This document shows, one piece after another, positions 21,520-55,280 of a DNA stretch of 64,000 nucleotides. Within the stretch, counting starts at the first letter, position 1. Every line of letters begins with the position of its first letter. Source of the DNA: Aspergillus flavus (taxonomy: Eukaryota; Ascomycota; Eurotiomycetes; Eurotiales; Aspergillaceae); contig NC_092404.1 in NCBI RefSeq assembly GCF_009017415.1, positions 1,054,001 to 1,118,000 of the forward strand, in the 5' to 3' direction. The notes beneath the pieces were generated by a model. It had not been told where the DNA came from. It did not search any database and was given only the letters and a program-made list of their open reading frames with translations. A program made the translations under genes and the position numbers.

Positions 21520-23027
21520 ATGGCGATCTCTTCGATAATCTTGAATCACGAGGAGAAGCGTATTCGTGAATTTTACCGCATAGTTTACTTATTAAGCTCC
21601 CTAGGCCTCAGGAGAGGAGATCGCATCAAGAGAGGAGATCGCATCAACAGAGGAATTTCAGTTGAACAGAAAAAATTCAGTGTTGCGGAATATAGGCGGA
21701 ACGTTGCCGACGCGTTGGCATACATATCTGCGTATGACAAAACGCCAGCCCGTGTGACTGCTGTTGCGCTTGGAATCGAAGAGGGTAGGCTAGTTGTATG
21801 GATAGCAGCTAACCAGGAGGTGAAGCCCAAAGTCGAGAATTTCCTAAACAGCGTGCTCAGTCGGCTTGATCAAATCGCATATGATCCTGAGTTGGAATGT
21901 GATGATTTGGTTGATTTCGTCCTCCAGTTCAACTGGAAAGGAGTCAAGAAATACCACGAGAAATTTGGTTCTGAATGGGCCAGTTACTACGAACCTCTCC
22001 AATCCTCAGGTCGGTCATTGAATCATTGCTCCTAGCGTATAAGAGACACACATGGCTAATGATTAGAGGAATAGGTCACAGCGTTCTCCGAGAGTTGAAC
22101 CACTGGGTTCAAGAAACATGCCCCAAACCTGGTAAGCCGGAGGATATGGCGGACCTGGCGAGGAAGTGCTACGAGGAACGCAAAAGAAACGGTGGAGTGT
22201 TCCATATGCTGAACGAAGCTACCAAGCAGGGCATTATGTCTTCCAAAGTGTCTGAGCAGTTATGTAACCTGCTTTACAAGATCGGGAAACATATTACTAT
22301 GTGCTTAAACTTGATCGATGCGAGAATGTCGCTCACGGAGGACTTCAAGCATGGTGCCGTGGTGAAACCAGTTCGTGTCCCTGCCCGACACCTTGACAGA
22401 ACTGAATGGAGATTTTCCTTTGATAGCATTACAACTCATATATTCCGGAGTGAAAGTGAGAAGCAGACATTTTACGGCCACGTTGATCTTTTCCATGATC
22501 ATGAGGTGATATCGGAAAAATTGCAGACATGGGTCAAGAATCCTCTTCGAGTGCACGCAGAGATTCAACTGATCAACCACTTTGATACCAATAACAGCCC
22601 GCTACTCGAGGAAAGAAATCCATACATTGGCTGTAGTAAGCCTGCTTGTTACCTATGTTACAAGTATATTGCCCACCATCCCAGACAATGGTTTCGGCCA
22701 CCTTCCCATCAAAAGCTTTATTATTCTTGGAGTCTCCCAAAACCGCGAGGGAAGGAGAACCGTGAAGAGTTCTTGGCTACAACAGCAGAAGTCCTCCAAC
22801 GCGAACTACGAGAAGATATTGCGAACAAGCGGGGGCCGAGATCGGAATTTGACGATTCGACTGCCGGGGTCACATCAGTTCCTCATACTTATGCAATGAA
22901 GAAAGAGGGATATGTCAACCCACAGTCGACTGTTGGTAGAACTATGGAAGCAGGGCACGGTAAGGCGGGACCCCTTGCTCTTCACGAATGGCTCTATCTA
23001 ATTGATGTAAGCTGGCATATCGTCTAG
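21520..23027 (+). CDS. OTT_1508-like deaminase-fold protein (HAE ... PACxxC)
   Basis: Two exons (21520-22009, 22075-23027) make 480 residues. The C-terminal part carries a cytidine-deaminase-type zinc signature: HAE at 324-326 (VHAEIQLI) and CSKPACYLC with Cys355 and Cys358. This matches the fungal OTT_1508-like deaminase group, proposed (from comparative genomics of the deaminase superfamily) to act on nucleic acids. The N-terminal ~200 residues are helical, with a paralogous counterpart in the next gene. Substrate and activity are not known. The gene lies tail to tail with a second, diverged copy, 344 bp stop to stop. A (GAG)n repeat follows the stop. It could instead act on free nucleotides. 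Confidence 0.75.
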
Positions 23028-23371
23028 GAGAGTGATAAGTGTAGTAGGAGGAGTGAGAGCAATTGGGAAACCGGACCATGATGACGAGGATAATCATGAT
23101 GATCATGAGGAGGAGGAGGAGGAGGAGGAGGAGGAGGAGGAGGAGGAGGAGGAGGAGGAGGAGGGTGGCGGTGGTGTTAAACTTCTTTAAACGGGCTCTC
23201 ATAGAGATTGTATCTTGTGACCTTACGCCTAGAATGCCCGAGAAGGGTCTGTCTCTCTGCAAGAGATCAAATGCCATTTCAACTATATGCTAGACTTATT
23301 CCAATCATCTCTCTGCATGTGTCATGATGGACCGTCAAACATTAAGAGCAGAACAAAAAGGAAAACCAGAT
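23028..23371. other. Convergent spacer between the two deaminase-like genes
   Basis: It holds the trinucleotide repeat listed separately and the two 3' UTRs; there is no gene. Confidence 0.5.
23107..23164 (+). repeat. (GAG)n trinucleotide microsatellite
   Basis: About 19 near-perfect GAG/GGA units lie just downstream of the first deaminase-like gene. Frames through it (poly-Arg or poly-Leu) are artefacts. Confidence 0.9.
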
Positions 23372-24990
23372 TCAGGTAATGAAAAATGTTCCCTGCCTTC
23401 CCCTGAAAACCACTTCGTCCTCTTCATCTTCATCTTCATCTTCACCTCCAGCATATTGGTCACAACCAGAAGGCTTGTCACCTTCGGTACCTAATGGAAA
23501 TCTATAAGGAGTAGGACATTCATCAGCTTCGCCATAAGATAGGTCCTCCGATTTCGTGGTAGTCTCAGAGGAAAGGCTAAACGACTGTGATATATCATCG
23601 TCCATCAATGACTCATTACTCTCGGAGCAACGATCCAGTACAAAACTCTCAACATCTCTGCGAACGCGCTCCGTAATTTTGCGCAGTATATCCGTCTGTT
23701 CTTTAAAATGTGCGCTGCTTTCGGCAGCTTGGATGTCAGGCAAGCGCCAGTGGAGGTCAATATCGTTTGGATCGCATTTTCGCAAGTGGTAGTTGAGGCG
23801 ATGTGACATATATTGACTGCAGAGGTAGCAAGACGGTTTGCTAGTGGCAATATATCTGTCGTACTTGTCGAAATATTGTACCCGATTACTCTTATCAAAA
23901 TAGTCCACAAGGCGAAGCTCCGGATGAATTTGGGTAAGAACATTTTCTTGGTAGTATTTAAGCCGTTCGATAAGCTTGCTGGGCGCAGGCACGAATCGCT
24001 CTAATACTTGACTGAGCTGCTTGGAGCGTTGACTATCGGAAAACATCCGATGGGCTATATCATCAAGATTTAGCTTCTTTCTGACGAGAGGGATCTTCAT
24101 GCGCTCTCCAGGAGGTACGTTGTAGACCTTAATTTCCCTGTGAAGATCCTGGCGTATGGAATTTGCTGATTTGAGAAGCAGCTCACACATTGCCATAGGC
24201 ATAGTCAGGTTTAGCAGCTGTCGATGGAACTTTTCGAACAATCCCGCATCCCGCTGGCTTTGGCAAACGAAACGTTTGAATATCTCAAACTTCCCATCCT
24301 GGTATGCAGAAAAGCAACTGCGGACCAGACCCGGCATATCATTTTTGGGCAGTGCCATACCATTACTGCTGAAAAACGTTCTCCGAAACCAATCCGCGAA
24401 GTCGAAACGAAGACTCGAATTGTCTGCATGGCTTCATATTAGTTACAGATTCCAAACCATAGGGAAGCCATTGTCATGCCTTTCGGGTCGCTGGACCTAG
24501 CAGCCATTGAATTTATGCAAATGGGCGCAATTTGATGAAATATCATTTGATACACTGCGAAGCTATTCTCATTGTGCAATCCCGTCACGTAATTTGAAAT
24601 TTTCAAAAGGTCTCTATTCCACGTTTCAGCACATAAGCCTGCATGGAGAGCACCTGTGACCATGTCTAGTAGTCTTTTTAGAAATTGAATAACCCGGTCA
24701 CTGACGTCCGGGCTGCCTGCGACGGCGATAACTACACTATCGTGGTCGTATCCTGCTGTGATAGCCAAGTCGCACCCTTGCTCAAACGCTGCAAGTTGAA
24801 CGAGCGCATTGAGGAAATCGCGGCGGTGATGTAAGATTCCTCCCACCTCGCCAACATCAACTACCTCGATATCCTTCTGCTCTACCATCTGCTCCTGTAA
24901 TGCACATAGTAAGGATAGAGGTTCATAGAGCCGCCGGAGTTCTCGTGGTCTATGACAGACATAGGGCGAAGAGGCCGGACGTTGCGCCAT
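23372..24990 (-). CDS. OTT_1508-like deaminase-fold protein, second copy (HPE ... PSCxxC)
   Basis: Exon 1 runs from ATG 24990. The deaminase exon ends at a stop at 23372. The best phase-consistent splice removes 24414-24496 (donor AG|GTCCAG, weak; acceptor after TTCGAG), giving 511 residues. With this model the zinc motif is His328-Pro-Glu330 (IHPELRLVDYF) and Cys360/Cys363 (SKPSCYLC). The N-terminal half resembles that of the upstream convergent gene (LxNALxxL...AVAxG), so the two are paralogues. The C-terminal tail is acidic (EDEDEDEEDE), unlike the other copy. Ala to Pro in HAE is tolerated in deaminases as long as His and Glu remain. The weak donor leaves open that exon 1 and exon 2 are separated by a frameshift. 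Confidence 0.65.
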
Positions 24991-27082: not shown

Positions 27083-27938
27083 ATGGCTTATAAAGCCTTC
27101 CCCAATACTGGAAACTGTCGTCGCAACAAGGTATTATCGCAGCTTCCAAGTCTGGCCAACCCACTAGTCCTGAAAATGTCTCCTGCGGCTCACCAGATCG
27201 ATGACTGCTACACTATCGCCGGTAAGTTTTGTCTATTTTATGGGAAGGCATGGTGATTGATGAACACCTAGATTTCGAGATTGGCAAGCGGCTGTTTACA
27301 ACTCATATGGCCGTGCAGTTAGTCGTGGCCTCACCTGAAGGTAGAGAAATTGGCTCCCTGGTGAGTTTTGCCTACCGCTACATAGTGACCTTTTAGGTCA
27401 CGGATGGCTAACGATCCTCTAGTCCCAGTTAGACGCCCTGATCACTGGGTATGACTTTGAAGAAGCTATTGCCACCTTGGTAAAAGCTGGCTTGGATGTT
27501 CCCCGAACAAATTTGGTTTGTGATGAGACCTATGAGGACGTCCTCTATAAAATCATAGGACGTACCAGACTAGGTGACTCGAAAGAATCCTTTCCCACAT
27601 TGTTGGGGCAACTCCCGTTGTTGGATCTATCAACTGATGGGGTAGACCTCACGGTCACTGCCACCACTCAACGGGTAGCGAATGGGCTTAACCTTAGTCC
27701 CCCAGGTTCAGAGGCCGACAATTGGAAGTATACATGTCGTTTGTGGGAGGATGCACAGGGAACGGGAGAAGAGCCAAAGGTAACGGAAGCATGCATTAGC
27801 AACTTTCCAACTAGGTTTCGGATCACGATTCAGTATTGTGGTGTGGAAGCCTCTGGTGAAGGAAGAAACAAGAAAACAGCGCGCCATCTCGCGGCTAGAC
27901 GTGTTTGTGAAAGGCTCAACCTACGGCTATCCTTGTGA
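27083..27938 (+). CDS. Small protein with C-terminal double-stranded RNA-binding motif
   Basis: Exons 27083-27221, 27272-27360 and 27423-27938 (GT-AG introns of 50 and 62 nt) give 247 residues. A second in-frame ATG at 27176 would give 216; an in-frame TAA precedes the first ATG. The C-terminal ~67 residues (about 177-243) look like a dsRBM: RFRITIQYCGVEASGEGRNKKTARHLAARRVCERL. The GxGxxKKxA(R/K)xxAA helix is the RNA-contacting part. The N-terminal ~150 residues match nothing I know. Such stand-alone dsRBM proteins often partner Dicer or deaminases. Here the gene faces a Dicer-like gene tail to tail, 580 bp apart, and follows two deaminase-like genes; partnership is inference. Confidence 0.65.
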
Positions 27939-28518: not shown

Positions 28519-31500
28519 CTATATTTGATTGACATGCGCTGTACCCTCGCCTGGTGGATCCTGCCAGAGATTCTGTGCTTGTGTAGGAGCCGGCTGTTTG
28601 GGATGATCTGTCACCACATCGTGAGATATAAAATGCTCAAGAAGTGGCAGGATTCCCAGTCTTTCGGCCAGAGCTTCCGACTGCTGTAAGCTAGCCAAAG
28701 AGTCGATGTATATCGCACCGAAAACACTCTGGACAATGTCAGAGAATACTTTGAGACCCCGAAAGACACTTAGTCGTGCCCAGGGATATATTCCGTTTTC
28801 CCATAGATCCCTCTTGATGACGTGGAGCTGACTGGTGAGATCTTCCACCAGACTGGATACCTTGTCTGAGAGAGAGTCGCTCTGTGAGCGTAGAAAATGA
28901 TAAAGCGCTACTCGGCCACGGGTCTGAATGACGCTTGGGATGCCCATACTATCGACCTCAATAATATCGTGTTGCTTCTCCCAATGGAACGTGAGACACA
29001 GGAATGCAAGGAACATATTGTTGGTCACAGCGGATTTCAGAGATTGCAGCCTTTTGGAGCTGGTAAAGCTCTTCTGCCTATGTAAGTACCTGACAACTAC
29101 CAATTCGATGATGCCGGCCCCAAGAAAGGATAGACGCCGATAAGATGCTGTCCCATAGAGTCCGACACAGGATGGGTGTGTCATTGATTCTATCGCCAGA
29201 CTTTTATCAGAAAATGTGTATCCAAGCAGGGCTTCCAGATCTATTATGGTTGAGGCACCCAGTGACTTGGATGGCCGAGACTTAGAATAAGTGCCATCGT
29301 AGAGAGATATTGTAGTCCAGGACTTGATCTTGGGGATCATTGCTGCTGCACATATGAAAGCCTGATCCAGTCCGTTGTCTAGGAAGGCAGCGCCGGCCAA
29401 GGCCTTGACCATATCAGCAACAGTAGCAGCGCCAACATATCTCCGCCTGGTGGGACCACTTTTTGACAGTGTTGTTGATACGAAAAACGGCCGCCACCGT
29501 TTCCCGTTGAACCGTGTAGTTATAAGATAGGATCCAAACCCAGAATGACACAACGCGGCTGCAAGCCCCGTATCTGACACGATGGAATCCTTCACGCTAG
29601 TTAAAAGGCCCTCGTGCCACAGAGTGTGATGCAGAAATAGCTGTCTCGTTATGAGAAACTTTACTATCGCGTCCCCGATAAACGCCATAGAGCGAAACTC
29701 GGGGCGATGCATATCATCGGTTGGGCTGAGAGCAATGCATAGCAAGTCCATTCGTTCGAAACGAGCTGCTTGGGGGTTTGAAAAGATCTGTTTCCTCAAT
29801 TTTTCTGCGATCAGATATACACCAATTCGGTGAATTATGCTCGGAGCTAACAGGGCAGCTTCGGCATAGATAGATGGAAGCCGATCGACCAAATAATCAT
29901 CAGCTGCCAACTCGCTCAATCCCTGTCGGACCAAACTTGTGGAGTGCTGGTTCTCTGTCGGTGTGACCGTCACTATCTTTGGATCGTAGAGAAAGTTGCG
30001 ACGTCGGGTCAATGGATGTATCTTGCCTCTGATACGTAGGTTTACCCCGTCTCTATGAGGGTCCTGGCACTCGTGCCCATCTATGACTTCGATACGCAGT
30101 GGGCGAGAGGTCTTTGTGACATGGCGCAAGAGGCCGAGCGAACCGGGCACAGTTGGGCGCTGCTGCAAGCAGGCAGCCAGGCTTGTCCTTCCGGAATGAG
30201 CCTCTAAGAATTTAGACATCGCAGCGGGATCCCTTTCTGGGACAATGATGTTAACATAGTCCGTGTTTAATTGGGTGCCGTGGCATTGATGTATGGACTG
30301 TAGAATTAAATGCGTCACCTGTTGACATATCGAAATGTCCGTGGAAACTGGCCTGGCCGAGCTCACAACTGCCTTATACTCCGTCCCGGAACCTAGGAAC
30401 AATGGAATACGAGTTTCGATTCTCAATGGGACTGGGAGAATCATGAAAAGTTCAATGTCTTCTCGCTGTGGTCTAGCAATGCGAAGCTCATGGCTAAAGA
30501 GCTCCCCTCCGCGAGACCAGAGCAAAGACACATCATGCCAAGGATCTAGCTGCTCAGATATGATATAGTGCGATTTTGGTGAGAGATCCTTTTCAATGAT
30601 GTCTGACAGTCGCAAGGGTAGAAAGTGATCATTGATAAGCCTGGCGTGAAACAAGGCCTTGTATGCTTGTAGGGCTGCATCTTCCTTTGCCCACTTTTTC
30701 TTCGCCCATTTCCTGAGACTCTTGAACGTCTGGAGGGATGGGTCAAGATTGCTGGGCAGCCTGACGATTGCCTGTACCTGGCCGCACTCGTCCGTCTCGT
30801 AGCTAAATGCAGGACTATTGCTCACAAATGGCTGAGCCGGTAATTCCGCGCAGAACCTATACAGGTGGCTAATGGCATTTCCCATAGTCATTTGAGCTCT
30901 GTTTGGTCAGTTTAGGAGTTCACAGTTTTGAGGGACATGTACACACCCTGTGGAAGAACTGAAAGCTAATGAGTCTCTGAGCCGTTCATCATGGTTCAAG
31001 CTGTCTGGGAGCACTGTCCTTCCCTCATCTTGAAGTTTTCTAACCAGCTCACTCTCCCGAAACTGGAGTAGGCTCACATTTTTTAGATCCTCTTCATCCT
31101 GAAGGAAAATGAAGAATTTGGACTGTTCTCTCCGTGCGCGCCCCCGACGCTGAATGAATGATTTTAAATTTAAGGTACAGTTGAAGTTCAGGACTGTGTT
31201 GCATGCCGGTATATCCATTCCTTCCTCCAGTGCGTCGGTAGTAATAATAAGGTCTAGGACCCCGTCCCGGAACTTTTGAAGTGTTTCCATTTGGCTTCGG
31301 ATATCATGAACATCTCCGAGCCTGGTTTTGCTTTGGTGAATCCGGGACATACCCACAAATGTCCCACAACGAAATCGTCGGCGTGTTTCTGGGTGATTTT
31401 CTATCAGCCATTTCAATGCAAGTACAGTTGCTCGCAATGAGACAAATATCAGAGCCCGGAATCCTTTCCTATGTTCCTCGATAAGAGTATCAAGTAAGCG

Positions 31501-32847
31501 TTGACTCATGGGTGAGATATTATCAGAGTGAACTAGCTCGTCATAATCTTCTATATTACCTAGCTTGCAAAGCATCTCCATAGCATATTCTCGTTCAGGG
31601 CTCGGAGTGTGTGTTTTCTCAGCATTCATTCGCATGTGTTCTTTGAATTGAGTAATTGAAGTCTGAATGTACTTCGTGGCGGCCCAAGGTCCTAGCTCCC
31701 TCCCTATTGTTTCCGCTTGGTTGCTAAAGCGAGTAAGATGTTTTTTTGCATTTTTCGAATATGAACCTCGTTCATAGGATGATTGTAAAAGTCCACGTAT
31801 TCTTTCGAGTATCAATGACGGACTTGGACTCGTCATTGAGCCACGCAACGGCACTAGGGGCACAATTAATGGTTGGTTTGTAAAGCGTAACAGCTGCGCA
31901 TAAAACTGGCGTGGCGTCTTGCACGGGCTGTGTAGTCTTCTCTCAATTTTCCTTTCGTTTACCTGTCAGGTCCTAATCTCGAATCTGTTCCCAATGCCAG
32001 ATGTATACATACTCTAAGGTGGAAATATTAGACAAAATTGGAGACGCTGTGAGGCCCAGGATGTATGGTGTTTGTTTGTCATGGCTCTGTGGTTCAGTGT
32101 GATAGTATTCTCGCATTATCTTACTGGCGGCATGGTCATCAGTGCAGTGGTGAGCTGGTTAGTCTGTCAGCTAACATCACATAGGGAGTGTCATCCATCT
32201 TTCCTCAGAACTTGCCTTCATCGAAGATAATCAAGGACAACCGGTCCATAGTTACAAACCTATGGACCAGGGCATCATAAAGAACCTGGTAGGTCGAGAT
32301 TGCAACCTTCACGCTGGCCAGGGCAATGTTCCACGTTTCCACAGTACCCCAATGATCGACGTTATCGTTACTGGTAAATGATCTACACCACATAGGAGGA
32401 ACATGGGCAGTGATGGTACGAACATGCTGGTTGCACAAAGCGACCGTTGGACACAAAAACCAGATAAGCTGCGGGAGGTTAATCATACTGTCCATATAGT
32501 AGGTAAGGACATCTTGCCTTGTCTGGGTCCCCTCGGTCTATCTCTGCGAGGATCCGGTGTATGGCACTTGTTTAAGTCTTGAGTACTTCAGCCCCAACCG
32601 AAAATGGATACGTCCCTTACATCTGTGTTTTCCCCGTTCCCGTGGGCATCTTAAAGGGGTGTTATTTAACATTGCATCCAGCTTTGGACGTAGAGAATAG
32701 AGGGGAAATGGCTCCACTTACCACTACAATCAAATTTCCTTCTAAACTCTTATTCACCATTTCCACTTGATAGTCCCTGATTTGAAAGTGCGTATCAACT
32801 GCGTCGCCTGGGACAGAGCCTTGGGTGTTATGCATGGTGGATGCCAT
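28519..32847 (-). CDS. Dicer-like protein (DCL2 type) with degenerate RNase III domains
   Basis: Seven exons (32847-32722, 32649-32621, 32566-32518, 32468-32216, 32154-32013, 31951-30947, 30898-28519) join in phase to 1327 residues. The order is DExH helicase, helicase-C, Dicer dimerisation domain (TGAQMTMGNAISHLYRFCAELP), PAZ-less linker, RNase IIIa, RNase IIIb. There is no C-terminal dsRBM. The helicase looks intact: MPTGTGKT (43-50), DEAHH (from D151), LTASP and QRRGRARR. The nuclease sites are not. In IIIa the LEFxGD motif is MAFIGD (E940 to A) and DxxE is DMVK (K1033). In IIIb it is LSFLGA (S1125, A1129) and DIVQ (Q1258). Dicers make siRNA from dsRNA; this one should not cleave normally. 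Introns 32469-32517 and 32155-32215 are GC-AG. It may be a dsRNA sensor, a dominant regulator, or a decaying paralogue. Confidence 0.85.
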
Positions 32848-33806: not shown

Positions 33807-34595
33807 CTACTTTCCCGTGCCGGTACCGGTCGTGTCTTCATGCATCCTTTTGTAATGTCTCCGTAAGTTGTCCTTCCGCGTGAAGGGTTTGGAACATATC
33901 CCACAGGAGAACGATTCCTCCATATTCCATTGATTCTTGGCCCACAGTTTGTGCGCTACCATTACGTGCCGACGAATATCTTTTGCTTTTGCAGCTTGGA
34001 CGGTACATCCAGGGCGGGGACATAGAACAGCTTTGTGGGTCCTCATATGCTTTCTGATATCGTTAGAAAAGGCACTGATGCAGATGGCAGAAGGATCTTA
34101 CATGAAGTGCGCCTTCTGCTTGAAGCCACGACTAGATTGGCTTTTCGGACGGTCGCAACGATAGACCCTTTCTGATGTGGCACTGGAACGATCGTAGGGA
34201 AGGCTTCTAGTTTCTTCCGAGCCCAGATCACAATTTGGCAGCGAAAGGAAAGACGCCTCTACCTCACCAGCTCTCGTTGACCCAGCGATTTCCAAATAGT
34301 CCTCCATGTCAGACAACCACCCAGTACTCTAAGGAGACTGATGTGCGTCTTCCGGGGACGTAATGCCTTGATGGGAGTTCTCTATTTGGATCAGATTCGG
34401 GTCAGGATAAAGGTATGGGAATGGCTCCAGCGTTGTACTGATCATAGTTGATTGCACCTCAAGATGTGGAAACGCAAAGGGGCCTCCAGCTGCCACGGGG
34501 TCGTCTGATATTTCGGTGGTGGGTATAGTCAAGCCCGAGTACCAAGTCGGGTCCTCGTTATAGCCAGGGAGAAGTGACTCCATGGCTAAAATCAT
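33807..34595 (-). CDS. C2H2 zinc-finger protein with an in-frame stop, possibly a pseudogene
   Basis: Exons 34595-34102 and 34053-33807 join in phase (48 nt intron). The joined frame has one TAG at 34329-34331, after EDAHQSP and before STGWLSDMEDYLE. The zinc-finger part lies after it: LCPRPGC-x12-H-x4-H, then SFSCGICSKPFTRKDNLRRHYKRMH, a canonical C-x2-C-x12-H-x4-H, at the C-terminus. A degenerate first finger spans the intron (YRCD...HMRTH). Either translation starts at the ATG 34305-34307 (MEDYLEIAG) and the upstream frame is not coding, or a nonsense mutation removes the DNA-binding part. The N-terminal segment (PTTEISDDPVAAGGPFAF...) is plausible as an activation region. Targets are unknown. 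The acidic, Pro-rich N-terminus suggests a former transcription factor. Confidence 0.6.
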
Positions 34596-35980: not shown

Positions 35981-37539
35981 TTATAACCTTCCCAGCTGCC
36001 TCGCCCAATGCCCGCAGATAGCGTCCCTGAGAATGGTCGAGGATGGAAACGATGTCGCGAAAGACGGACTCGGGTACCTTGGAGAGCCTAGTAGCTCGTT
36101 AGTTAGACCTTCGGCTATCCCATATAGCACATACATATTGTCAGTCAATTCCAGTCCTGGATGGTGGAAATGTTGCGGATAAGGGATTAATGCGAGTATG
36201 CCATTGCCGAACCGCTCCTGTAGGATGTGAAATCTCCGTGCGAGTAGTCGAAGGTTGCGAACATGATTGTATCCCTTTTTATATTCTGGAGATCCCGGTT
36301 CGAGACCAGGGAGCACTTGCTTCATCATCGCTGTCGTCAGCTTTGACTCTGCAATTTTAAGGGGATTACCAGCTCGTTTGATGGCCGATGCGTTATAAGC
36401 TGGGGTTGTAACAAACCCTGATAATGATGGAATCTCACACCCACCACAGGCTTTGAATAAGTATGAGATGTGGTATCTTCGAAATAAATTCAAGCCCGTG
36501 ATTGTCTGGTCGATGAGGCAGATATTAGTATATGTGTCTGCCTTCGAGGAATGCGTAGAGATCTGCAGATGAAGCTGGTCGGTCCTCGATCGCCAGGTTT
36601 GCATCGCCTCTTTTAAAACCAGAACCGACAGTGAGCTGCCAGAAGCTAATATTAGCCGTTTCAAAAGATCATCGTACTGTTTCAGGCCGGCCTCCTGGAT
36701 GGCTATCTCAATTTCTGCGCTAAAGTACCATTCTCGCGGGGTTCGTATAGATCTCGCTTGACATTTCATGGTTTCTTCCTCCAGGAAGGATACAATTGGA
36801 TTATGCATCTGGTGTCGACCTCGCATTGGCTTTGGTTGATTCTCCCCACTCTTCTCGAACGAGATATCCATCGATCGTTGGGGTTTGCTCACCTGTGCCG
36901 TGTCTGGTAGTAAATCTGTCGTCTCGGCACGTCTGTCAGGTTCCCCAGAGAGTAATATGGGCAGATGCGTATCCATATTTATGCTAGCCTGTAGCCGTGT
37001 TGGATCCACCCCGTTATCCTCTTGAGTAAAGAACCTATCATAGTCTTTGGTCAGTCCCTGGTTTAATCAGCATCCATAATAACGCCTTACCCTATATTCT
37101 CCAATATCTGCCACGTACGACGATGGCTTCCCCCACAGTCGAGATGTGCGGCTGCAATGATCGCTGCCATGGTCCTTCCGACTGTAATGTGACGTTCTTC
37201 GCCGGGCGGCGAGTTGTATGGAATCATCCTGTCAATAGCCGTGCGTTGGGCGACTGAAACAAGATGAGCGTAAGTACACAGTTTTTCCTTTCCTGCGGCA
37301 ATATCGCCTTCTCAATGTCAGATTAGTCGAACATCCACGAGCTCGATGTCCTCACCTGGTGGAATGCGCGTCTGGTAAGCATGGAACGAAAGACATAGAC
37401 GAATCAAATCAATCCCTAAATCCCCCAACCATTCCCTGTCGGCCCTAGGCGCTATAAGAGCGTCATAAAGGTGGATCTGTGGCTCATTCTGGTAACCCAG
37501 AATGTGTGCGACTTGATCAATGCTGGTATTGATGTCCAT
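35981..37539 (-). CDS. RNase III-fold protein with half an active site
   Basis: Exons 37539-37356, 37253-37091 and 37034-35981 join in phase to 466 residues. The first ~110 residues have the fungal RNase III-like layout. HILGYQNEPQIHLYDALIAP corresponds to the helix with the substrate patch. REWLGD supplies Glu36 and Asp40, matching E41 and D45 of bacterial RNase III. HITVGRTMAAIIAAAHLDCGG is the second signature. There the usual D-x-x-E is R88-x-x-A91, so two of four metal ligands are lost. No dsRBM was recognised in the remaining ~350 residues, which match nothing I know. The family is found in fungi as stand-alone mini-RNase III proteins of unclear role. With the degenerate Dicer nearby, it could hint at a dimer with split sites, which is conjecture. 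Confidence 0.65.
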
Positions 37540-39377: not shown

Positions 39378-42269
39378 ATGGATCGAGTCTCCAATATCGC
39401 CGGTCGCTTCCAAAGAAACTTGACAGAATTACATACAGTATGTGAACTAGCTATCAACTTTCGAGAGGATCAATGTGAAGTTCTAATACCAGCTCGGTTA
39501 TCCTTGAAAAGCGGTACCACGGAGTTAGCTTTCAATACCTCCCCCTACAAGGACCTTCGGACATCCGTCTACTCAGTATCCAGTCTGGAAGGCCAAGTGA
39601 TGGGATTTCCTGCTCCATACGAGTCGTTAGCCTTGACGAAAACCCAGAATACACGGCTCTCTCTTATACCTGGAGGAAACAGCACTCACCCTTGCGTGGT
39701 GGCGCCCTCATGGCGTTTGAAACCATGAGATCGATCTATCAAGGGAATTTATTTGATATGCACATTCCAGAGGTTGAAACAGAGGAGCGCAACCCCAAGA
39801 CCATCCTGTGCAATGGCCGCAGAATTAATGTATCTTTGAATTTATATGACGCCTTGCTATCACTCAGACAGATACAATCAAAGAGTTGGTATTGGATTGA
39901 CGCATTATGCATAAACCAAAGGTACCTGACATCTCATATTTGTTGTCTAAATTGGCCAGAGAAAGGCAAATGGAGCATGAGACTAAATAGTTTATCAGTG
40001 ATGCGGAGGAAAAGACTCTTCAGATTCAGAAGATGGATAGAATATACCAATCTGCCGAGCTTGTTCTTGTCTGGCTCGGTGACTGCTCGTCAAAGTTAGC
40101 TCGAGGTCTTCCCAGCTTAGAAACACTCGCGAAGAAGACGCAAAATGAACTACCGCCGCTGCCCAAGTTCAAGGGGCCTGGTGGGGAGTTGCAAGCGGCG
40201 GCCACGACTGCGGTAGATCTTTCCTGTCGGCAATGGTTCAAGCGGATCTGGGTACTCCAAGAATACCTTTTAGCAAGAAAAGTCAACTTCCTCTATGGTA
40301 ACAATGAAGTTAGCTTGGGTGCCTTACTGACCGCTTGTATATGGGTATCTCATGACCCTGGTGCCGCAATGACACCCGAGCTGCCAATGAAGGCTGAATT
40401 GAGAGAAGCCCTTGCCCACACTAATGACATCCCCAACTTCTTGTTAGCTCGCCAAGCCATTGGTCAGGGCCGCAGGTTGACCCTCCGCGAATGGCTTCGG
40501 GCATGTCGAAGGCGCTATGCTAAAGATCCCAGAGATTTTGTGTTTGGCGGCCTATCTCTGATTTGCCCTGAGTCATTGAAGATAGACTATCAGCGCCTTC
40601 AGCTGGGAGATTATCCATGCGTTGAAACTCAGGCGCCTATACTCCCTCCTAGGGCGGGTATACACTCTCAGAAAGACAATCGATTCACTGCGGAACATCC
40701 CACTGCCACATTTAAAGGCCCAACATCATCATCACTTATACCTGGGGGTCTATGGGATTTCCTCAGGGCTGACTATGCGGCCAGCGAAGTCGAGGTACTT
40801 ATCAATGTTGCAGCGTGCCTGCTTTCCCAGAAAGGGCAGCACACCCTCGATCTGCTTTCTATTGCGGCTCGTAGGCCGTGGGATGACTTTGACGCTGACG
40901 TACGCAATTGGTTCTGGCCTCGCGCTCATCCTATTCTCCCATCTTGGGTCCCAGCTTTGGGTTCCAGGGGTGTAAGTTCATCGGACATTTGCTCAACTCG
41001 TCCACTTTTACTTTACCCTACCCCCCTGTCAACACAGATAACGGCGCATACTAATCTGGATCTCTATAGTCTCTTGAACATAGCAACTTGGCATCTACAG
41101 CAGAAGCATCGGATCATGCTGGTACAACCTTTGCAGCTGGTATATTAGGACAGCCGGGCCCATCACCTAAGATCTCTCGCGACGGCAGGACGTTATTCCT
41201 TGAGGCTGCACCCCTTGACACCGTCGAGAATATACTTTTAGATAATACTCTTATGACAGATGAGTACATCGACATCCTAATTAGGTTCCTTGAAACTGTT
41301 GGCGGGATGCCCCGCGCTCACCTCCCAAGTGGTGGGACGAGTTTCGACGCGGTCGCAATATCCCTTGCTTCTTCGCTGTTCTTCTCTTTTCCCCAAAGCA
41401 CAAAACTAAACGTCACTAAGGGCCAAAACCATGAAGGAATATCCTTATCATCTGTAAATGAGCAGCATGCGCGTTTCTGGCTTTGTGAGTTTATCGAGAG
41501 CGAGGTGCGCCACTGGGTGACGTATTTAAGGATGACCCGCGAGGACTATGTTTTGGCGCATGGGGTTGAGTCCTCAGGAGCGAAGTGGCCAGAGGAAGCT
41601 AGTATAGAACGGCAGAAGAAACTGGATAGCCTTATATCCGCTTACTGGCAGCTGAACGAAAAGTTTGATGATCTTCCATGGTCTAGGACAGCAGATGAAG
41701 GTGTGGCGGCAGCAACAGCAGCAACGCCATCCAACGAGGTCACGTCCAATCTATGGGACCTCCTGGAGACCTTACAGTCTGCTGTTGATGAGAAAAGCTT
41801 TGTTTGGAAAAGGAAGCTATTGATCTCTCCCGAGGCACAGCAATACGTTACTGCCTTTTCTCTCGATCTTAAAAGGCGGAGCTTGTTTATAACGCAAGAC
41901 GGGCTTATTGGAATGGGGCCTAGTTGGTTGAGAAAAGGGGATCGGGTGATGCTGGTCAGAGATGCCAGTGTTCCTTACGTGTTTAGACACGTTGATGAGG
42001 AATTGAGGCACCAACTGCAAACAATGGAGATGAGGGAGGATTTGTTGAGAGAATGCTCCGTTGAAAGGAAATATAGCTTGTCACGGCAACTCAAGCGGCC
42101 CACCCTTGAGAGGCAAATATCAGACCTAAACCTGAGAATTAGCCACCTTCAATCTGGCACAAAAGATGGATGGATTTTAATTGGGGAGTCGTACATTCCT
42201 GGTGTCATGCTAGGAGAGGTTCTGGAAAGAGGCGGTTCTGAAATCTTTGGAAGGATTGCCATAGTATAA
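39378..42269 (+). CDS. Heterokaryon-incompatibility (HET) domain protein
   Basis: The phase-consistent model has exons 39378-39437, 39512-39921, 39999-40971 and 41070-42269, for 880 residues. The HET domain shows its usual blocks: GPSDIRLLSI, then EYTALSYTW (ends near 74), IDALCINQ (149-156), SDAEEKTLQIQKMDRIY, VLVWLGD, and RQWFKRIWVLQE (near 236). The long C-terminal region ends in GWILIGESYIPGVMLGE, also typical. HET proteins trigger programmed cell death after non-self recognition in filamentous fungi; the partner is unknown. The first-exon choice rests on the only ATG whose intron restores the frame, so the start is moderately sure. An intron at 39922-39998 is needed to read CINQSD. Direct repeats lie on both sides. 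Confidence 0.88.
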
Positions 42270-44014: not shown

Positions 44015-46590
44015 TCAAAGCTCCCAGTCGTCAGACCGACTCGATTTCTTTTTGGTCTTCCCCTTTTTCGACTTTTTCGATCTCTTCAAATCCCTCTGCT
44101 CGATTGAGGGGGCTCCTATTGGCTGATCCCCTATATAGTCATAGCCTGATTCAGTGACTATCTCTGCAGGTGTTGGCTCATCCACAAGAGGGGGAGCCTG
44201 CTGTGAAACTGGAGAAAGAATATCGGGGATGGTGGGACTTAAATAGGTATTGTTCACTGACATGTCAATAAATGTAGGGTCTTCGTTTTCGTAGAGATCA
44301 TCAATGCTGGCTTGTGGGGTATCAACCTTTTCCAGGTTGTCCAGCTCCTCTGGTCGATCGTCTTCAACGATGTCTATGTTAGATCACTTCATTAGTTGAC
44401 GGTATTGCCTCTCAGGGTGGGCGAGACTCTTACCGAGCCCTCGTATACCGATAAACATTCTACAAGTCTCAGATCCCTTCCGCAGGATATACAGTTTGCG
44501 GGAGAGTTGATCTCGGAGAGATTTGTTCTCTATTGACTCTCCCGCAATACGTGTCGCCAGGTCATCTGCCATATCGAAGACAAGTAACGGCGCAAATATA
44601 TCCGCGAGTGGCTTGATGAGATTGGTCTCGATGACCTCGATCGCCACACCGTCGATAAACCGTTTTAGAGCGACCTGATAGAACTTAATAAGACGAGGAA
44701 GCCAACTCCTAACAGATAGGACTGTCATACCTTGTAGTACGCAAGCATACACTCAAGCGCCTCTGTGGCAGCAAAGCGACTCATGCTAGACTCTGTGGAC
44801 TGAAGGATTGAATCATGAAGATGACGGAGATTGTATGATGGGCCATCCAGAGAGGTCGCTTCCAAGGATGAGACACCGAAGAAGTTGCAAATGATCGTTG
44901 AGAGACCATCTCCCCAGGCTTCGCGCCGGGCCTTTTGAAGATTCTCGGTAAAATAGTGATTGTATGTAATTGGATGGCCCTGCTGATGGGGCTGCAGAAG
45001 TTCACTGGTTCGTTGTTGTAGATCTCTGAGCAGCTGGTCAAACCTCGGGTCTACAATCTCCCGGAGCAGCCCCTTTGCCGTAGTAATATCACCTATATGC
45101 AGTACAACAGCTCGAACGAAGTCTTTCGCAATATTCCAGGCTGTCGTTACGTGACCTCGCGCGATAGCCTCCCATTGACTGGATTGCTCCCTGAATAGCT
45201 CCCCTATTATCAATGGATTGAACGTGCCGGGGAGCTCTTTGCCTCGTGTGTGTTTGAGGACATTTTGGATATGCTGGATATATTCTTCTCGCGTCACTAA
45301 AACCTGTTGTCTCGATACCGCCTCGCTCTCATCTCCATCTGTTATTTGACGATAATGACCGCCCGAAGTGATCCTTTCAGTGAATTCTTGATTCAGATTT
45401 TGTATTATGGCACGTATCCGTCTGCTATAGCCACTCGTTGACTGGCCACTATTGAAGAATGGGTCATTGTAGGTGCCATCGGTAGCAGTTCTCACAAGGT
45501 TCTGGAAACTCTGGCTGATATGCAAAAGATAGTACTTCTGCTCCGCTATCGTTGTTCGAGGGCTTCCAAGCCTCTCTAGCCTTCGTTGACAGTCGCCAAC
45601 TTGGACTTGAATTTCTTCTATCAGGCTGGGAAGTTCAGTCGCAATCTGCCCAAGCAGTACCTTGCTGAGGCGCTCCCGAAACGGCTTTATAGCCACATCA
45701 GATAACGGAAGATCTCGCCAGACACCCTTGGCAAAAAAGTGTTCTTCCTCCGCATCCCGTTCTGTTAACGTACCATTGCTCTTCTCTGAATCCTGGTTTT
45801 TCAGTACATGCCAACCGTGCCGGAAGGAGACCTGTTGATTTTTCGCCAGTGAGACAAACATCGCCTCAGTCTCCGATCCTGGGGTCAGCGTATCGGGTTT
45901 GGTGATGACACCCAGCGTCCGAGATCCGGTCCTATCTGCCTCCCGGGCTAGTGTAAGAACAATTTGATTGGCAAAATCGTTCTTTGCAGAGACCACAGCT
46001 AGAATAATTGAACGCGGCTCCCGCATATAGGATTGTACAACATCCTGCACGAGTTTAACATCCGCAGCCGACTGCTGCTTGGTTTCCGAATGGATAAGAC
46101 CGGGTAGATCGACAATGGTCAAATGCGGCCGGTCAGGGCCTGACACCTCTACCCGAAGTAGATCATTGGAAAACGCCTTTCCGTGCGTAGAGATACCCAT
46201 GATCGCTTTTGCATTGTCGATAAGACGTGGCAAGCCGTCGAAGCCTTCGAGCTGCTCGTGGAATTGGCTTAAAGACTGCTGTTCTGCCTCCGTTCGTGAA
46301 TGATGTGGCACAATGGACACGCTCACCCCGATCTGTGGGCTCTTGCGCAGGACGAGCTCTGTAGGAAATCGTGTACAGAGGTTACTTCGTACAGGGAATG
46401 ATACGCCCGAGATCGCTTCCAGGACCGAGCTCTTCCCAGAAGATTGATCTCCACAAACGATGATTTGGGGAAGCGAAATATAATGGCTGATGCCCTGCAA
46501 GCGCAGCGTGTCAATGGAGTCGAGCAATTCTAGTTGCTCCTTCGTGCAAAGCTCTTCAAGGGAGTTTGTAAAGAATTTTTTAAGGACCAT
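44015..46590 (-). CDS. Dynamin-family large GTPase (Mx/Vps1-like layout, no PH or PRD)
   Basis: Exons 46590-44731, 44674-44449 and 44373-44015 join in phase to 814 residues. GTPase motifs are clear: P-loop GDQSSGKS (47-54), switch-1 Thr in CTRFPTEL, DLPG (161-164) and TKPD (230-233). A long stalk follows, then a GED-like helical C-terminal segment (ALKRFIDGVAIEVIETNLI... LADDLATRIAGES). No PH domain or proline-rich region is visible, as in Mx-type and other fungal dynamin-like proteins. The tail is Lys-rich (KRSKKSKKGKTKKK), unlike Mx. The start is ATG at 46588-46590; an upstream GTG is not used. Such proteins often remodel membranes, and in animals Mx proteins block viruses. Whether this one does is unknown. 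Confidence 0.85.
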
Positions 46591-47854: not shown

Positions 47855-49410
47855 TTAACCTCCCCTGGATACCCGACTCTGTCTGGTTTGAGATTCATGT
47901 CTCTTGCGCGTATTCAGATGCTGCGTGAATGATTTCTCGTTTCTCGGGGATCTGGAGAGGTTATGGTTGTACCTGGGTACTTCTCGGAGGATAACTGCGC
48001 TTTCTTCGTTGGGCATGGTACGTTCGACGTCGAGCCATTTGCTTGGGGTTTGTCTTATAGACTCGCTGTCTGCCTGTAGCATAGATCCCTTGTGGAGCGG
48101 CGATGCCTCCCCGGGAGTGATAAAATGGGGAAACAGGACCAAAACAGGGTGTCCACGAAGGTCCGCACCCTTGCCTGTATTAGACCTTCCGGCTTCAGCA
48201 CAGAGGTGTCCATCAGAAATTGTTGTCACCCATTTAGAGCTCCGTTGCACTTTGCCCCACAAATCGGCTGCATTTTGGAGAAAATGACGGAGTTCGTCCT
48301 CGAACCCAGTACGGCCCCGCTCTAGTAAGGGCTCAACTATGTCGACAACCTCGAAGACAACGCTCTCAATGTTTTCGTCCACCTGCCTCTGTTCATCTGA
48401 TTCAAACACCTTTACTAGAAGTGCACGTAGTAATGCTTTCTCCTGAGATGTAATTTGATTGCACTGGTCAAGGACACAGCTCATTGGCATCCGGCTAGCT
48501 GGTGCTTCAAGACACAATGACTGGAATATATCGCGGGAGAGACGGCTAGAAATTAGGGATTGCACGCAGGAAGCACGGAGCTTTTTAGATTGTCCAATAG
48601 CAGGCGTAGGAAACATCGAAAAAGGATTCGGTGGTGTACGTGCTTTCCACTGGACTTGCTGAATGGTAGGGATTACCTTATTTATTGAATTTTGTTAGAG
48701 ATCGGTATCAAAGCACAACGTAAGTGATGGAGAATATACCTGGCTGATATCAGTCGGAAAATCCTTGTAGAAATATTTCTGAACCATGTCGCGCAAGGCC
48801 ACCTCGAGCTCTTTGATGTTCTGTATCCTAGCCTATATGAGCCTATAAATAATCTCGGCAGGATATATGAAGCGGGCACTTACAGATCAGGACCAAAGTC
48901 CTCCAGTTGAGTCGCCCGTTTCAATTCTTCAACTTCTTGTTGACTCTGTGCAAGGCGCCCTTGTAGACCGACGATTGTCGTATCCTTTTCTCCTAGTTCG
49001 GTACGGACCCGGCGAAGCTGCTCGTCTTGATTCCGGACCTTTCTTGATAGATCGTGTAACTGGGCGTCGCGACTCGTTTCTGCATCCTCCCTCGTTTTCT
49101 GTAACTGGGCCAGAAGCTCCTTCTCTTTCTCCACCCAGCCTTTGACCCGCTCTTCCAGGAAGTCACTCAGATGTGCCTTTTCAGTCAATAATGTTTGTTG
49201 CTTCTGACGCTCTTCCTCCAATTGCCGTTTGTGATCCTCTACTGTCGAATGTGCGGCCTTGAGTTGGTTCTCAAGCTCTGTGTTTTTATGTTGTAGTTCT
49301 TCGTGGGTTTTAAAAGATTTGGAATGATATATCACGTCTTCCGCTGCTGCCTGCAGAGCCTTGATGGAGGACCAAAAGGATTTGTCCTTTGACTTATCTT
49401 TGGGCGTCAT
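47855..49410 (-). CDS. Coiled-coil protein of unknown function
   Basis: Exons 49410-48884, 48827-48740 and 48676-47855 join in phase to 478 residues. ATG 49408-49410 begins MTPKDKSKDKSFW. About residues 25-170 are a long Glu/Gln/Lys/Leu coiled coil (ELQHKNTELENQLK, EEERQKQQTLL, REDAETSRDAQL). A short conserved block KELEVALRDMVQKYFYKDFP follows, then a more globular C-terminal half (RTPPNPFSMFPTPAIGQSKKLRASCVQ; RTGFEDELRHFLQNAADLWGKVQRS). I do not recognise the family. It lies between the dynamin-like and HerA-like genes on the same strand, so the three may work together, possibly as scaffold. Its last codons and 3' flank recur at 43.3 kb. Confidence 0.7.
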
Positions 49411-50735
49411 TTTGAATATAGATAAATGACTATTGGATATCACGTTTGCTTCCGATCACGATCATGAGGGATTGCACCCCTTTTTAAGCCATGGCCTACC
49501 TTGAGAGTATGCAAATTACATCTCTGGTAAATCCATTTGTTCCGACCTGCTACGACGACATTCATTTATGCAAGGCAAAGCTTTGCGTCGAAAGTTCTCC
49601 AGGATCGCGTGAGGCCCATATGCAAGGACATTGGCGGTCAGAACTTTCCATCCCCTTGCGTTGCAAATATAACATGGAGTCGCTTTGTGATCACCTAGCA
49701 TATCAGCAAAGACGGGGAGAGACGGCCCATTGTTGAAGCAGCTAGATAGGCACACTTTTGCTGGCACAGTGTTTCGGAATACTTTTTCTGTCATCATATC
49801 GAGTCTACCTTATATCCAGGTATTATAGGGATGCCTTCGTTCTATGACCTCCACCTAGTGTTGGATACTATTTGCCTCAATTTTCTATTGCACCACCCAT
49901 TTGTATACTATCCCTTCTCCTTGCTCATCAAATATGACACCCAGCCCGTGCTGTATTGTTGGCTGCCTACGATCTCAGGCGAGGGGTTACAGGAGCAGAC
50001 ATATGACATCCTCATTCTATCTGGAGGCAGCCTTGCAAGGAATAGGAATGTTATGAGTCGAGAAACTTGGGTTTTGGAGTTTTTCCATAGGCTACATATC
50101 GGAGGCCTGCAATTGTGGTCGCTTTGCAGCAACATCTTACCTCCCTAGCTTGTACCACAAGTTTCTTCTCCTCGATGGAAAATAGCACCTGCAGGTTAGA
50201 CTCATGATCCAATATGTAGATATAGTCAGGTTGCCATTGGAGTTGGGAGATGTATACTCTTGGATTGGGTTAAAGATGACACGCGTCGTGTACTGATGCT
50301 GATGCAAGCTATTCCTCCAATGTAAGGCAACGAATCCACGCCTTGCAGTGATAGACCTTGGATATAGTGCGAAAGGAATTATGCTTAAATAGAGCAGATT
50401 TGTGGAAGCTTTCTTTTCAATTATTGATGTAGGCCACTTACAAATTGAGTCTGACTATAGCTTGGTATGGGACTACTAGCGAATCGCGTTCAAGTTTGGC
50501 ATTCATATCACTGCACTGAGTGAAAAAGTGCAACACGGATAAGTGAGCAAGGCTTGACATGATCAAAATAATCCCCTCGGAGCACCCTTCTACTTGGGTG
50601 GATAGAAATCTTTCGGATGCGTAGCAACCTTGCTTCGAACGCCACCAGCATGTACCTGAAATGGTCAATTTTCCTTCACTGTAAAGTTGAAAGCTACATG
50701 GAGCCACACAAATCAAGACACAGAAAGTCTGGTGA
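49411..50735. other. 1.3 kb spacer, no gene seen
   Basis: It holds the promoter of the coiled-coil gene and the 3' flank of the HerA-like gene. Short reading frames here lack support. Confidence 0.4.
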
Positions 50736-52482
50736 TCAAACCGAAAGGACACTCTTTCCACCATCAGAGGTCAATCGTTCCCGGACTTTTATAGGCAAGA
50801 AGTCGGAACCAAGTCGGTGAAACTCCACCCGGCCATCCTCCAGTGTTCCAACCTTGACAATAGCGCTCGGCGCAAATAACAATGCTTCGCCAACGCGAAG
50901 ACGGACAATAATGTCAAACGCCGAGGGAGACTCCTTCTCATCCCCCGGTTCTTCCACCTCGCTGCCATTATTGCCAAAGCCACTCTTTGAAGAGAAAAGG
51001 TTGCATGCAGCTGCGGCAAGATGCTTTTGCAACGTTCGGAGCCATTCGGGGGAGGTAAATCGATGAACAATTGTAACAGAGCATAGATTCAACAAATCGG
51101 TCGAGATTGTCGGCTCTTGGGTAGAGATGATAACTCGTGTTCCAAGGTGTCGTTGAAGACGAACTGCTGATAGTAGTGTTTCTGTGAAAATCTGGGCCTC
51201 TGCAGAGGAGTTCATATACTTTACGCTTATTAGAAACATCCCTAAGCCTGGCAGAGTTGCATACCTTATGTGCTTCGTCAAGTGCAACCACCCGACCAAT
51301 GGTTGGGTCTTGTTCGAGGAAGATCCCCAGGCAAATATTGAAAAGCGAGCAGGCCGTTTCTGGGGATATACATGGACATGACATATCAACAATAGTTAAG
51401 CGACCAGGCTATATGCTTTAGCAGATACCGAGGGCGAAATGAATTCCCGACTTACCACTGGATCCCATATTGAGCTCTTTGTCACCTTTCTTTCCTTTGA
51501 CCTGGACATTTGTACTTGCTCTTGAGGCATAAAACTCTCTAGAGTATCGAGTCTCTGCTTCAAAGGTACCAGCTGATCCCGAGTCAGCCCACAACGCAGG
51601 ATTCTATCCTTGAACTCTTGATAATTGAATAGTGTCCCTGACTCCTGTTGTATTATCCGTAGTTCACGAAGGACTCGTTTCACCGTATGTATATATAGTG
51701 GTATCTGCCCGTCTTTCTGTCCGATAGCCATCAAATCCATCATCCGTTTCGTGTTCAAATGATTCTGGTCCAGTTGTAATGGATCAACTGGTATATTGAA
51801 CCTCGAATAGTAGCCCTATATCCTCTATGTTATGATCATTATCTATTATATCACGTTGTACAAAGCTTACCCGTATAGTGTGAATATTTGTGGGGGAGCA
51901 AAGTACTCGGACATGCACATCTGGGTGTGATGACAAGAAGGATGCCTCACAGGGGGATCCCACTGTGTCACTGATAAACGTATCATAATGGAAGACTAGT
52001 CCTGTTAGCGGGTTCGGCAACCTGCCGGCCTTTGAGGGTATCAGGCAGTTTTCCAAAAGGCATGACAATGTATGGCTCTTTCCGGAACCCTGGGAGCCAC
52101 ATATAAAGACGCTGGAAGGGTGTGAAACATTGAAGAGTAGTCGAGGATCCTTATCCAAGCTCGCGATAGGAGAGGCACGCTTTGGACGAAGATCTTGCAA
52201 AAGGGGCCTTGAACCGGCCAATAACCCAAACTGCGGGATCTTTGGCTTATCTTGACCATTTCCCAGGTTTGCATGACAAGCTAAAACACTGCTTGAGATG
52301 ATAGGTGCATACGCCGATTCATCTGAGACCACTTCGCCTCCATGACCGGATTTAAGAAGGCTTAGATGATATCGTATGACGTCGTCGGAGAATATTGGAT
52401 CATTCAGAGCTCCATCTGATAAAGGAGAAATGGTTTTGGTGGTCCCAGATGTTGAGCTAGTAAAATCCTCAATTGAACCCAT
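50736..52482 (-). CDS. HerA/FtsK-like P-loop ATPase
   Basis: Exons 52482-51871, 51815-51456, 51408-51265 and 51218-50736 join in phase to 532 residues. Walker A is GSQGSGKS (129-136, in SSVFICGSQGSGKSHTLS). Walker B with the catalytic Glu is VVALDEAHKY (D368, E369). A sensor-like Gln follows in RVIISTQEPT, then the HerA-type segment ISTDLLNLCSVTIVHRFTSPEW. This order (Walker A, DEAH, TQ-P, IIHR) is that of the HerA/FtsK superfamily, which pumps or translocates DNA. In prokaryotes HerA ATPases pair with nucleases and defence effectors. I see no N-terminal HAS barrel, so this may be a distinct fungal branch. No nuclease is adjacent. The intervening 51456-51815 exon (VKRVLRELRIIQQESG) fits a helical insert. 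Confidence 0.7.
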
Positions 52483-55272: not shown

Positions 55273-55280
55273 GTTTCTTA

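What the first reader, a model, noticed from the sequence alone, without database searches (positions are those of the whole stretch)
21520..52482. Accessory island rich in RNA-handling, deaminase and self/non-self genes
Within about 31 kb lie two deaminase-fold proteins, a dsRBM protein, a Dicer-like protein, an RNase III-fold protein, a C2H2 factor, a HET protein, a dynamin-like GTPase, a coiled-coil protein and a HerA-like ATPase. Long spacers, repeats and broken genes separate them, while conserved housekeeping genes sit to the left. The domain calls are from visible motifs. A shared defence or RNA-surveillance role is inference, suggested by analogy with clustered immune loci.
Basis: partly seen in the sequence, partly recalled or inferred. 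Interest (0 to 1): 0.85.

Follow-up and report, generated by a model that had tools for sequence, protein, structure and literature searches.

The report
Antiviral RNA-editing locus with dead Dicer
This stretch of an Aspergillus genome looks like a known kind of fungal virus-response switch, in which an RNA-editing enzyme is thought to unlock a gene blocked by a stop codon, sitting beside an old Dicer relative that has lost the residues needed to cut RNA; that the dead Dicer helps to sense virus RNA is an idea to test.

Summary
The gene content is real. The window lies on a 3.085 Mb contig of an Aspergillus flavus-like genome. The left half (21.5-37.5 kb) reads best as an OLD-ZAO locus: two OTT_1508-like deaminases in a convergent pair and, 9 kb away, the genome's only close ZAO match, a C2H2 gene cut by one in-frame TAG (34331-34329) in a predicted hairpin loop. 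Public A. flavus and A. parasiticus models both start after that point. Between them lie a small dsRBM protein and an intact Dicer-like gene (dcl2-2) with kept helicase motifs but dead RNase III centres: all four catalytic glutamates are replaced in the 33 nearest of 38 homologues (27 named Aspergillus or Penicillium, 6 unnamed), one branch with 100% support; the other five and the genome's own Dicers keep those that could be scored. dcl2-2 and the deaminase share a contig length in 6 of 7 comparable species. Dynamin and P-loop genes on the right map to AFLA_042270 and AFLA_042300, named in print as virus-responsive. OLD-ZAO is known; my searches found no report of the dead Dicer clade. Sensing by Dcl2-2 is inference. 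'Repeats and broken genes' is mostly not borne out.

The parts
21520..23190 (+). OLD-A, OTT_1508-like deaminase, HAE...CSKPACYLC; intron 22010-22074 (by eye); a last intron before an acidic poly-Glu tail coded by the (GAG)19 array at 23107-23164 (3' end provisional)
   Evidence: PF14441 E 3.5e-21; 96% over 300 aa to A. flavus CA14_012113, P0046; TRF; sequence
23372..24990 (-). OLD-B, second deaminase, HPE...SKPSCYLC, convergent with OLD-A
   Evidence: PF14441 E 3.7e-12; 100% over 352 aa to A. flavus NRRL3357 G4B84_010617, P0041
27176..27938 (+). 216 aa protein with a C-terminal dsRBM; 3 exons (27176-27221, 27272-27360, 27423-27938; splice sites by eye)
   Evidence: PF00035 E 7e-6 on the spliced model; model
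28519..32847 (-). dcl2-2: Dicer-like protein, 1,327 aa, 7 exons, two GC-AG introns (32517-32469, 32215-32155); helicase motifs GTGKT, DEAH, LTASP and QRRGRAR kept; RNase IIIa and IIIb catalytic glutamates lost
   Evidence: splice sites by eye, guided by relatives
33807..34583 (-). ZAO/CHE1-like C2H2 gene: exon 1 34583-34102, intron 34101-34054, exon 2 34053-33807; two clear C2H2 fingers and a first one, by eye, that lacks a zinc Cys
   Evidence: the 150 aa after the TAG identical to A. flavus F9C07_1848591
34329..34331 (-). in-frame TAG (codon 85), the adenosine in a predicted CUUA tetraloop; candidate premature-stop editing site
   Evidence: background rate of such loops
35981..37539 (-). 484 aa protein with an N-terminal degenerate RNase III-like domain (REWLGD... 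/ GRTMAAIIAAAHLDCGG); no second copy listed in this genome
   Evidence: model; PF14622 below cut-off; PDB match E 1.9; search with its C-terminal part found only itself
39378..42269 (+). HET-domain protein, about 3 exons (start provisional)
   Evidence: PF06985 over two ORFs
44015..46590 (-). dynamin-like GTPase, mapped to AFLA_042270 (low end provisional)
   Evidence: PF00350 E 3e-38; mapping
47855..49410 (-). coiled-coil-type protein (extent provisional)
   Evidence: search found only itself
50438..52482 (-).
   Evidence: sub-threshold P-loop matches; mapping

Best explanation
The left half of the interval is an Aspergillus OLD-ZAO antiviral RNA-editing locus that also holds a dsRNA-recognition set. 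SHOWN BY SEQUENCE: two OTT_1508-like deaminases of different type (HAE and HPE) in a convergent pair; a ZAO-like C2H2 gene interrupted by one in-frame TAG; an intact Dicer paralogue (dcl2-2) with helicase motifs kept and both RNase III centres dead; a dsRBM protein; a weakly supported RNase III-like protein. INFERRED: virus infection yields dsRNA; Dcl2-2, unable to dice, binds it as an ATP-driven sensor, perhaps with the dsRBM protein; OLD-A, probably paired with OLD-B, edits the UAG in the zao mRNA hairpin loop to UIG, read as Trp; full-length ZAO then switches on the locus and growth-restricting outputs. Whether the dynamin and P-loop genes to the right are such outputs is open. I give about 0.85 to the OLD-ZAO identity, 0.95 to Dcl2-2 being nuclease-dead, and about 0.4 to a functional link between the two.
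For: PF14441 in both deaminases; HxE and CxxC residues kept. ZAO marks as published for OLD-ZAO and CHE1: a TAG between an open N-terminus and C2H2 fingers, A in a hairpin loop, and gene models starting at the first Met after the stop in two species. The 84 codons before the TAG are the only open frame of six, with coding score +1.0 against -19.7 to -30.5. Dead Dicer; one side of a branch with 100% SH-aLRT when the catalytic columns are left out; Dicer fold kept (best PDB match a Dicer, E 1e-24). In print: A. flavus partitivirus 1 raises DCL3.
Against: No RNA data were seen: neither editing nor expression of this ZAO is shown. The loop position is weak evidence (of 773 sampled TAGs, 212 have the A in a hairpin loop and 85 in one as tight), and the region is not more stable than shuffles (45 of 200 and 82 of 200 as stable). 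The first finger lacks a zinc Cys here but has it in A. parasiticus, which could mean decay. ZAO is not directly adjacent to OLD. In A. nomiae, dcl2-2 and OLD-B lie on different contigs, and 17 of 26 named dcl2-2 sources gave no OLD hit. PMC10372822 found no expression change in its Dicer candidates. That 'DCL3' in PMC10682719 is this gene is not shown in the passages I saw. No shared promoter motif.
Confidence: 0.5

Rival explanations
1. Dcl2-2 is a non-cutting regulator of ordinary RNA interference (a dsRNA-binding decoy or a partner of the active Dcl2 on contig C6). Its place beside OLD-ZAO reflects only a tendency of antiviral genes to cluster and be co-induced.
For: The genome keeps a Dcl2 with all eight residues and a Dcl1 intact at the six scored positions; the dcl2-2 helicase motifs are intact; linkage alone cannot tell partnership from clustering. 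In N. crassa, as reviewed, the Argonaute QDE-2 represses OLD-ZAO, so RNAi and OLD-ZAO touch anyway. Many dcl2-2 species gave no OLD hit.
Against: Linkage is seen in six species, one of them (A. uvarum) outside section Flavi as I recall; suggestive of more than loose clustering, not decisive.
Confidence: 0.3
2. The ZAO gene is a recent pseudogene and the TAG is an ordinary inactivating mutation; the locus is decaying in A. flavus.
For: Zinc-ligand Cys lost in finger 1; only one interruption, so a recent event is possible.
Against: The A. parasiticus model starts at the same downstream Met, which suggests that the stop is shared (not proven, its DNA was not seen). TAG in a hairpin loop before the fingers is the published OLD-ZAO arrangement.
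Confidence: 0.15
3. The TAG is removed by a small intron, so ZAO is not regulated by editing.
For: A pyrimidine-rich TTAG could serve as a splice acceptor (by eye).
Against: No strong donor nearby by eye. For the Fusarium homologue such introns were called erroneous annotations. The A. flavus model starts after the stop instead of splicing it.
Confidence: 0.1
4. The whole 31 kb is a chance run of accessory genes.
For: The right-half genes have paralogous matches elsewhere (HET on C6, dynamin on C3); no shared promoter motif.
Against: dcl2-2/OLD-A linkage in 6 of 7 comparable species, dcl2-2/ZAO gene numbers in A. parasiticus, OLD-A/OLD-B neighbouring numbers in A. bombycis.
Confidence: 0.1

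Closest known systems
OLD-ZAO system of Neurospora crassa (Honda et al. 2025, as described in the review PMC12754623, which I read whole; the original is not held)
   Same: OTT_1508-like deaminase near a zinc-finger gene; premature UAG in the zinc-finger gene; hairpin loop
   Different: Here two unlike deaminases form a convergent pair; ZAO is 9 kb away rather than next door; a dead Dicer, a dsRBM protein and an RNase III-like protein sit in and beside the module. Editing not shown here.
CHE1 of Fusarium graminearum (PMC11169179, parts 1 and 2 of 5 read)
   Same: C-terminal C2H2 fingers behind an in-frame TAG in a hairpin loop; the same annotation error (start after the stop)
   Different: TAG is codon 85 of 242 here, codon 146 of 310 there; a zinc ligand of finger 1 is lost here
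Dicer-like 2 (Dcl2), compared with the copy on contig C6 of the same genome
   Same: Helicase, dimerisation domain, two RNase III domains, Dicer fold
   Different: All four catalytic glutamates and, in this gene, one aspartate replaced; C-terminal tail shorter
RIG-I-like receptors and DRH helicases (recalled)
   Same: Dicer-type helicase without nuclease activity, proposed dsRNA sensor
   Different: Here the RNase III domains are still present as dead folds; sensing not tested

Membership tests
OLD-ZAO system | OTT_1508-like deaminase with HXE...CXXC | tested here: met
OLD-ZAO system | zinc-finger gene adjacent to OLD | tested here: inconclusive
   C2H2 gene in the same locus, 9 kb away with two genes between; only close match listed in the genome
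OLD-ZAO system | in-frame UAG before the fingers, in a hairpin loop | tested here: met
   loop background 85 of 773
OLD-ZAO system | UAG edited to UIG by OLD on infection | not testable with these tools
   no RNA data
Active Dicer | catalytic Glu/Asp set in both RNase III domains | tested here: not met
   5 of 8 residues replaced in the window gene
dcl2-2 clade (dead Dicer) | all four catalytic glutamates replaced, one clade | tested here: met
   window plus P0001-P0033, 33 of 33; the other 5 of 38 hits keep those scored; 100% SH-aLRT, quick tree
dsRNA-sensing Dicer-type helicase | intact helicase motifs I, II, III and VI | tested here: met
   window gene; by pattern in 13 of 33 relatives' models, the others mostly short models not looked at further
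dsRNA-sensing Dicer-type helicase | binds dsRNA and signals | not testable with these tools
   needs protein
RNase III | curated family score and four acidic residues | tested here: not met
   35981-37539 protein: PF14622 below cut-off; first motif E and D kept, second motif pair lost by eye
HerA-type ATPase | HerA/DUF87 domain | tested here: inconclusive
   only sub-threshold P-loop matches, on three ORF pieces rather than a spliced model

The most novel reading that the evidence does not exclude
A Dicer that lost its nuclease before Aspergillus and Penicillium split has been kept as a RIG-I-like dsRNA sensor. With a dsRBM protein it is the missing cofactor that licenses a heteromeric OLD deaminase to edit open the stop-locked ZAO switch, coupling dsRNA sensing directly to RNA editing.
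Probability: 0.25. Interest if true: 0.92.

Novelty: new variant of a known kind. Interest (0 to 1): 0.77.

Why it matters
The OLD-ZAO review read here says that OLD needs unidentified cofactors and that the details of virus-induced activation are unclear. A conserved, nuclease-dead Dicer with intact helicase motifs, linked to OLD in several species, is a concrete candidate for both and makes the question directly testable. It also means that automated 'Dicer-like protein 2' labels on this clade are misleading: by their residues these proteins should not dice. It would add a fungal case of an RNA-processing enzyme turned into a probable sensor.

Tried and rejected
Shared promoter motif: 7- and 8-mers in 12 upstream regions (10 island genes plus the second OLD pair) against 21 controls were no better than label shuffles (55 and 49 of 60 as good); at 9-mers no candidate was left and the script stopped with an error before its shuffles. 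PDB fold match for OLD: none at E <= 0.001. dsRBM protein as the detached C-terminal tail of dcl2-2: no significant similarity (best E 1.8). A remnant of that tail behind the dcl2-2 stop: on re-check the significant similarity ends at TDHPK; a continuation in another frame is by eye only. Search of viral contigs for dcl2-2: nothing. A ZAO at the other OLD loci: no C2H2 pattern in the 19 kb read around the second pair nor in the 6-6.5 kb read around each of three single copies, apart from one inside a deaminase ORF. Original OLD-ZAO paper: not held. PMC3210457: listed for AFLA_0423 but no occurrence in the main text held. Supplementary tables of PMC10372822: no look-ups allowed, so the direction of change of AFLA_042270/042300 was not seen. 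Transposon-rich island: no support. The idea that the Dicer gene is broken: rejected (an earlier join, used a wrong acceptor and was corrected).
Full report
WHERE. The window is C7:1054001-1118000 of a 37.7 Mb, 8-contig genome; C7 is 3.085 Mb long, so the locus is about 1 Mb from its nearer end. Proteins of three genes match A. flavus at 96-100%.

DEAMINASE PAIR. OLD-A (21520-23190, +) and OLD-B (23372-24990, -) converge. Both carry PF14441. OLD-A has HAE, OLD-B has HPE; the Cys pair and the Glu are kept in both. The genome search listed 7 such matches (a lower bound by the tool's own note); two others form a second convergent pair at C7:738-740 kb with the same HAE/HPE division. The HAE/HPE division recalls the Tad2/Tad3 heterodimer; that OLD-A and OLD-B pair is inference.

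ZAO. On the minus strand an ATG at 34583 opens a frame that runs 84 codons to a TAG (34331-34329), then on through one intron to C2H2 fingers that end at 33807. Two fingers fit the pattern; a first one is by eye. The upstream piece is open only in this frame of six and scores +1.0 as coding, against -19.7 to -30.5 in the other five (small training set of 36 kb of long ORFs); the piece between TAG and intron scores -7.3, with the next frame at -7.8, so it is not told apart by this score, though it alone is open. The TAG adenosine lies in a CUUA tetraloop in folds of 61 and 201 bases, but of 773 sampled TAGs of the window (about half of all) 212 have the A in a hairpin loop and 85 in an equally tight one, so this alone is weak. 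The A. flavus (F9C07_1848591) and A. parasiticus (RU639_009658) models both start at the first Met after the stop, one of the annotation errors reported for Fusarium CHE1. These were the only 2 hits of that search. One locus of the own genome matches well; the next has E 4e-4. Against function: finger 1 lacks its second Cys here, while A. parasiticus has it.

DEAD DICER. The gene at 28519-32847 (-) is open after splicing: 7 exons, 1,327 aa, two GC-AG introns, which may explain why several public models lack the N-terminus. Helicase motifs I, II, III and VI are present; by pattern 13 of the 33 closest relatives' models show motif I, and all 13 show the other three. The RNase IIIa set reads A, D, D, K and the IIIb set S, A, D, Q, where the genome's own Dcl2 reads E, D, D, E twice. 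One search scored the 7,993 candidates sharing most words and listed 38 hits. All four glutamates are replaced in the 33 closest (P0001-P0033: 27 named Aspergillus or Penicillium, 6 unnamed) and kept in the other five where scoreable (one has a gap). A tree with the eight columns left out puts the window and the 33 on one side of a branch with 100% SH-aLRT (quick method, no bootstrap, long outgroup branches flagged by the tool). Since Aspergillus and Penicillium members share the loss, it probably predates their split. Long open frames in them argue for use, not decay. The predicted structure (pLDDT 82.5) matches solved Dicers (E 1e-24). The window protein and models P0001-P0006 depart from relatives such as P0008-P0011 after the TDHPK motif, so the dsRBD-like tail appears lost there.

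LINKAGE. Searches (dcl2-2; OLD) share nine named species. In two (A. parasiticus, A. pseudonomiae) the tags show different assemblies. A. nomiae is the miss (292,289 against 45,345; only OLD-B was found there). dcl2-2 and ZAO are RU639_009656 and RU639_009658 on an 867,876-base contig in A. parasiticus. Seventeen of 26 named Aspergillus/Penicillium dcl2-2 sources (for example A. niger and all Penicillium) gave no OLD hit at E 1e-15; absence was not tested.

OTHER MEMBERS. The 216 aa dsRBM protein (27176-27938, +) lies tail to tail with dcl2-2. The 484 aa protein upstream of ZAO has a degenerate RNase III-like domain, weakly supported; a search with its C-terminal part found only itself.

RIGHT HALF. 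PMC6090018 (one passage) names AFLA_042370 an isoprenoid synthase and AFLA_042390 a GAPDH (GAPDH also in PMC8809346). A GAPDH lies at C7:1131.5 kb and a terpene-cyclase-like ORF set (by eye, WDDEID motif) at 1122.6-1123.9 kb. By eye six genes lie between the P-loop gene and the cyclase, as the numbers 042310-042360 require. The other dynamin match on C7 is 1 Mb away, and none lies near the GAPDHs on C2 and C6. So I map dynamin to AFLA_042270 and the P-loop gene to AFLA_042300. PMC10372822 (sections 11, 12 and 14 and passages read) lists both among common differentially expressed genes of partitivirus-swapped isolates; direction not seen. The same paper reports no change of 4 Argonaute, 18 Dicer and 3 RdRp candidates. 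PMC10682719 (passages read) reports three DCLs, all raised by AfPV1, and failure to obtain a DCL3 deletion; whether its DCL3 is this gene is inference.

PRIOR ART. [quoted passage not shown] Searches for dcl2-2 with Aspergillus, inactive Dicer paralogues, DCL3 with A. flavus, and Dicer pseudoenzymes (listings, the last showing 20 of 84) showed no report of the dead clade. A survey of 1,592 fungal proteomes (PMC12663654, abstract and passages) has no hit for 'inactive' or 'catalytic residue'. Of the five papers with OTT_1508 and deaminase I read one whole (PMC12754623) and passages of one (PMC13327615); neither spoke of Dicer linkage there. The library lacks most subscription journals.

VERDICT. 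The left half is a new variant of a known system with an unexpected, old, dead Dicer; the right half may be co-responsive. The sensing mechanism is a hypothesis.

Noticed in passing
G000 C7:738-740 kb (L023 8086-9030, L024 3-1064): A second convergent OLD-A/OLD-B pair with the same HAE/HPE division, without a C2H2 pattern in the 19 kb read.
   Followed up: partly
23107-23164: (GAG)19 codes for a poly-Glu tail of OLD-A; the A. flavus CA14 protein P0046 has 6 Glu in a row there.
   Followed up: partly
55154-55273: A 5S rRNA gene; it explains the dispersed element with 38 listed matches in the genome.
   Followed up: yes
38080-38266: A 16-base tandem repeat of 11.4 copies between the RNase III-like gene and HET.
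   Followed up: no
38545-38593 and 38673-39049: The first piece matches window 43370-43418 at 88%, the second matches C3:2707.6-2708.1 kb on both strands, so a small repeat lies before HET.
   Followed up: no
28519-28595: After TDHPK the dcl2-2 end departs from relatives in the window and in P0001-P0006; a continuation in another frame is visible by eye only.
   Followed up: partly
32469-32517 and 32155-32215: Two GC-AG introns in dcl2-2, a possible reason for N-terminally short public gene models.
   Followed up: partly
34102-34160: Finger 1 of the ZAO-like protein lacks its second Cys, which A. parasiticus has.
   Followed up: partly
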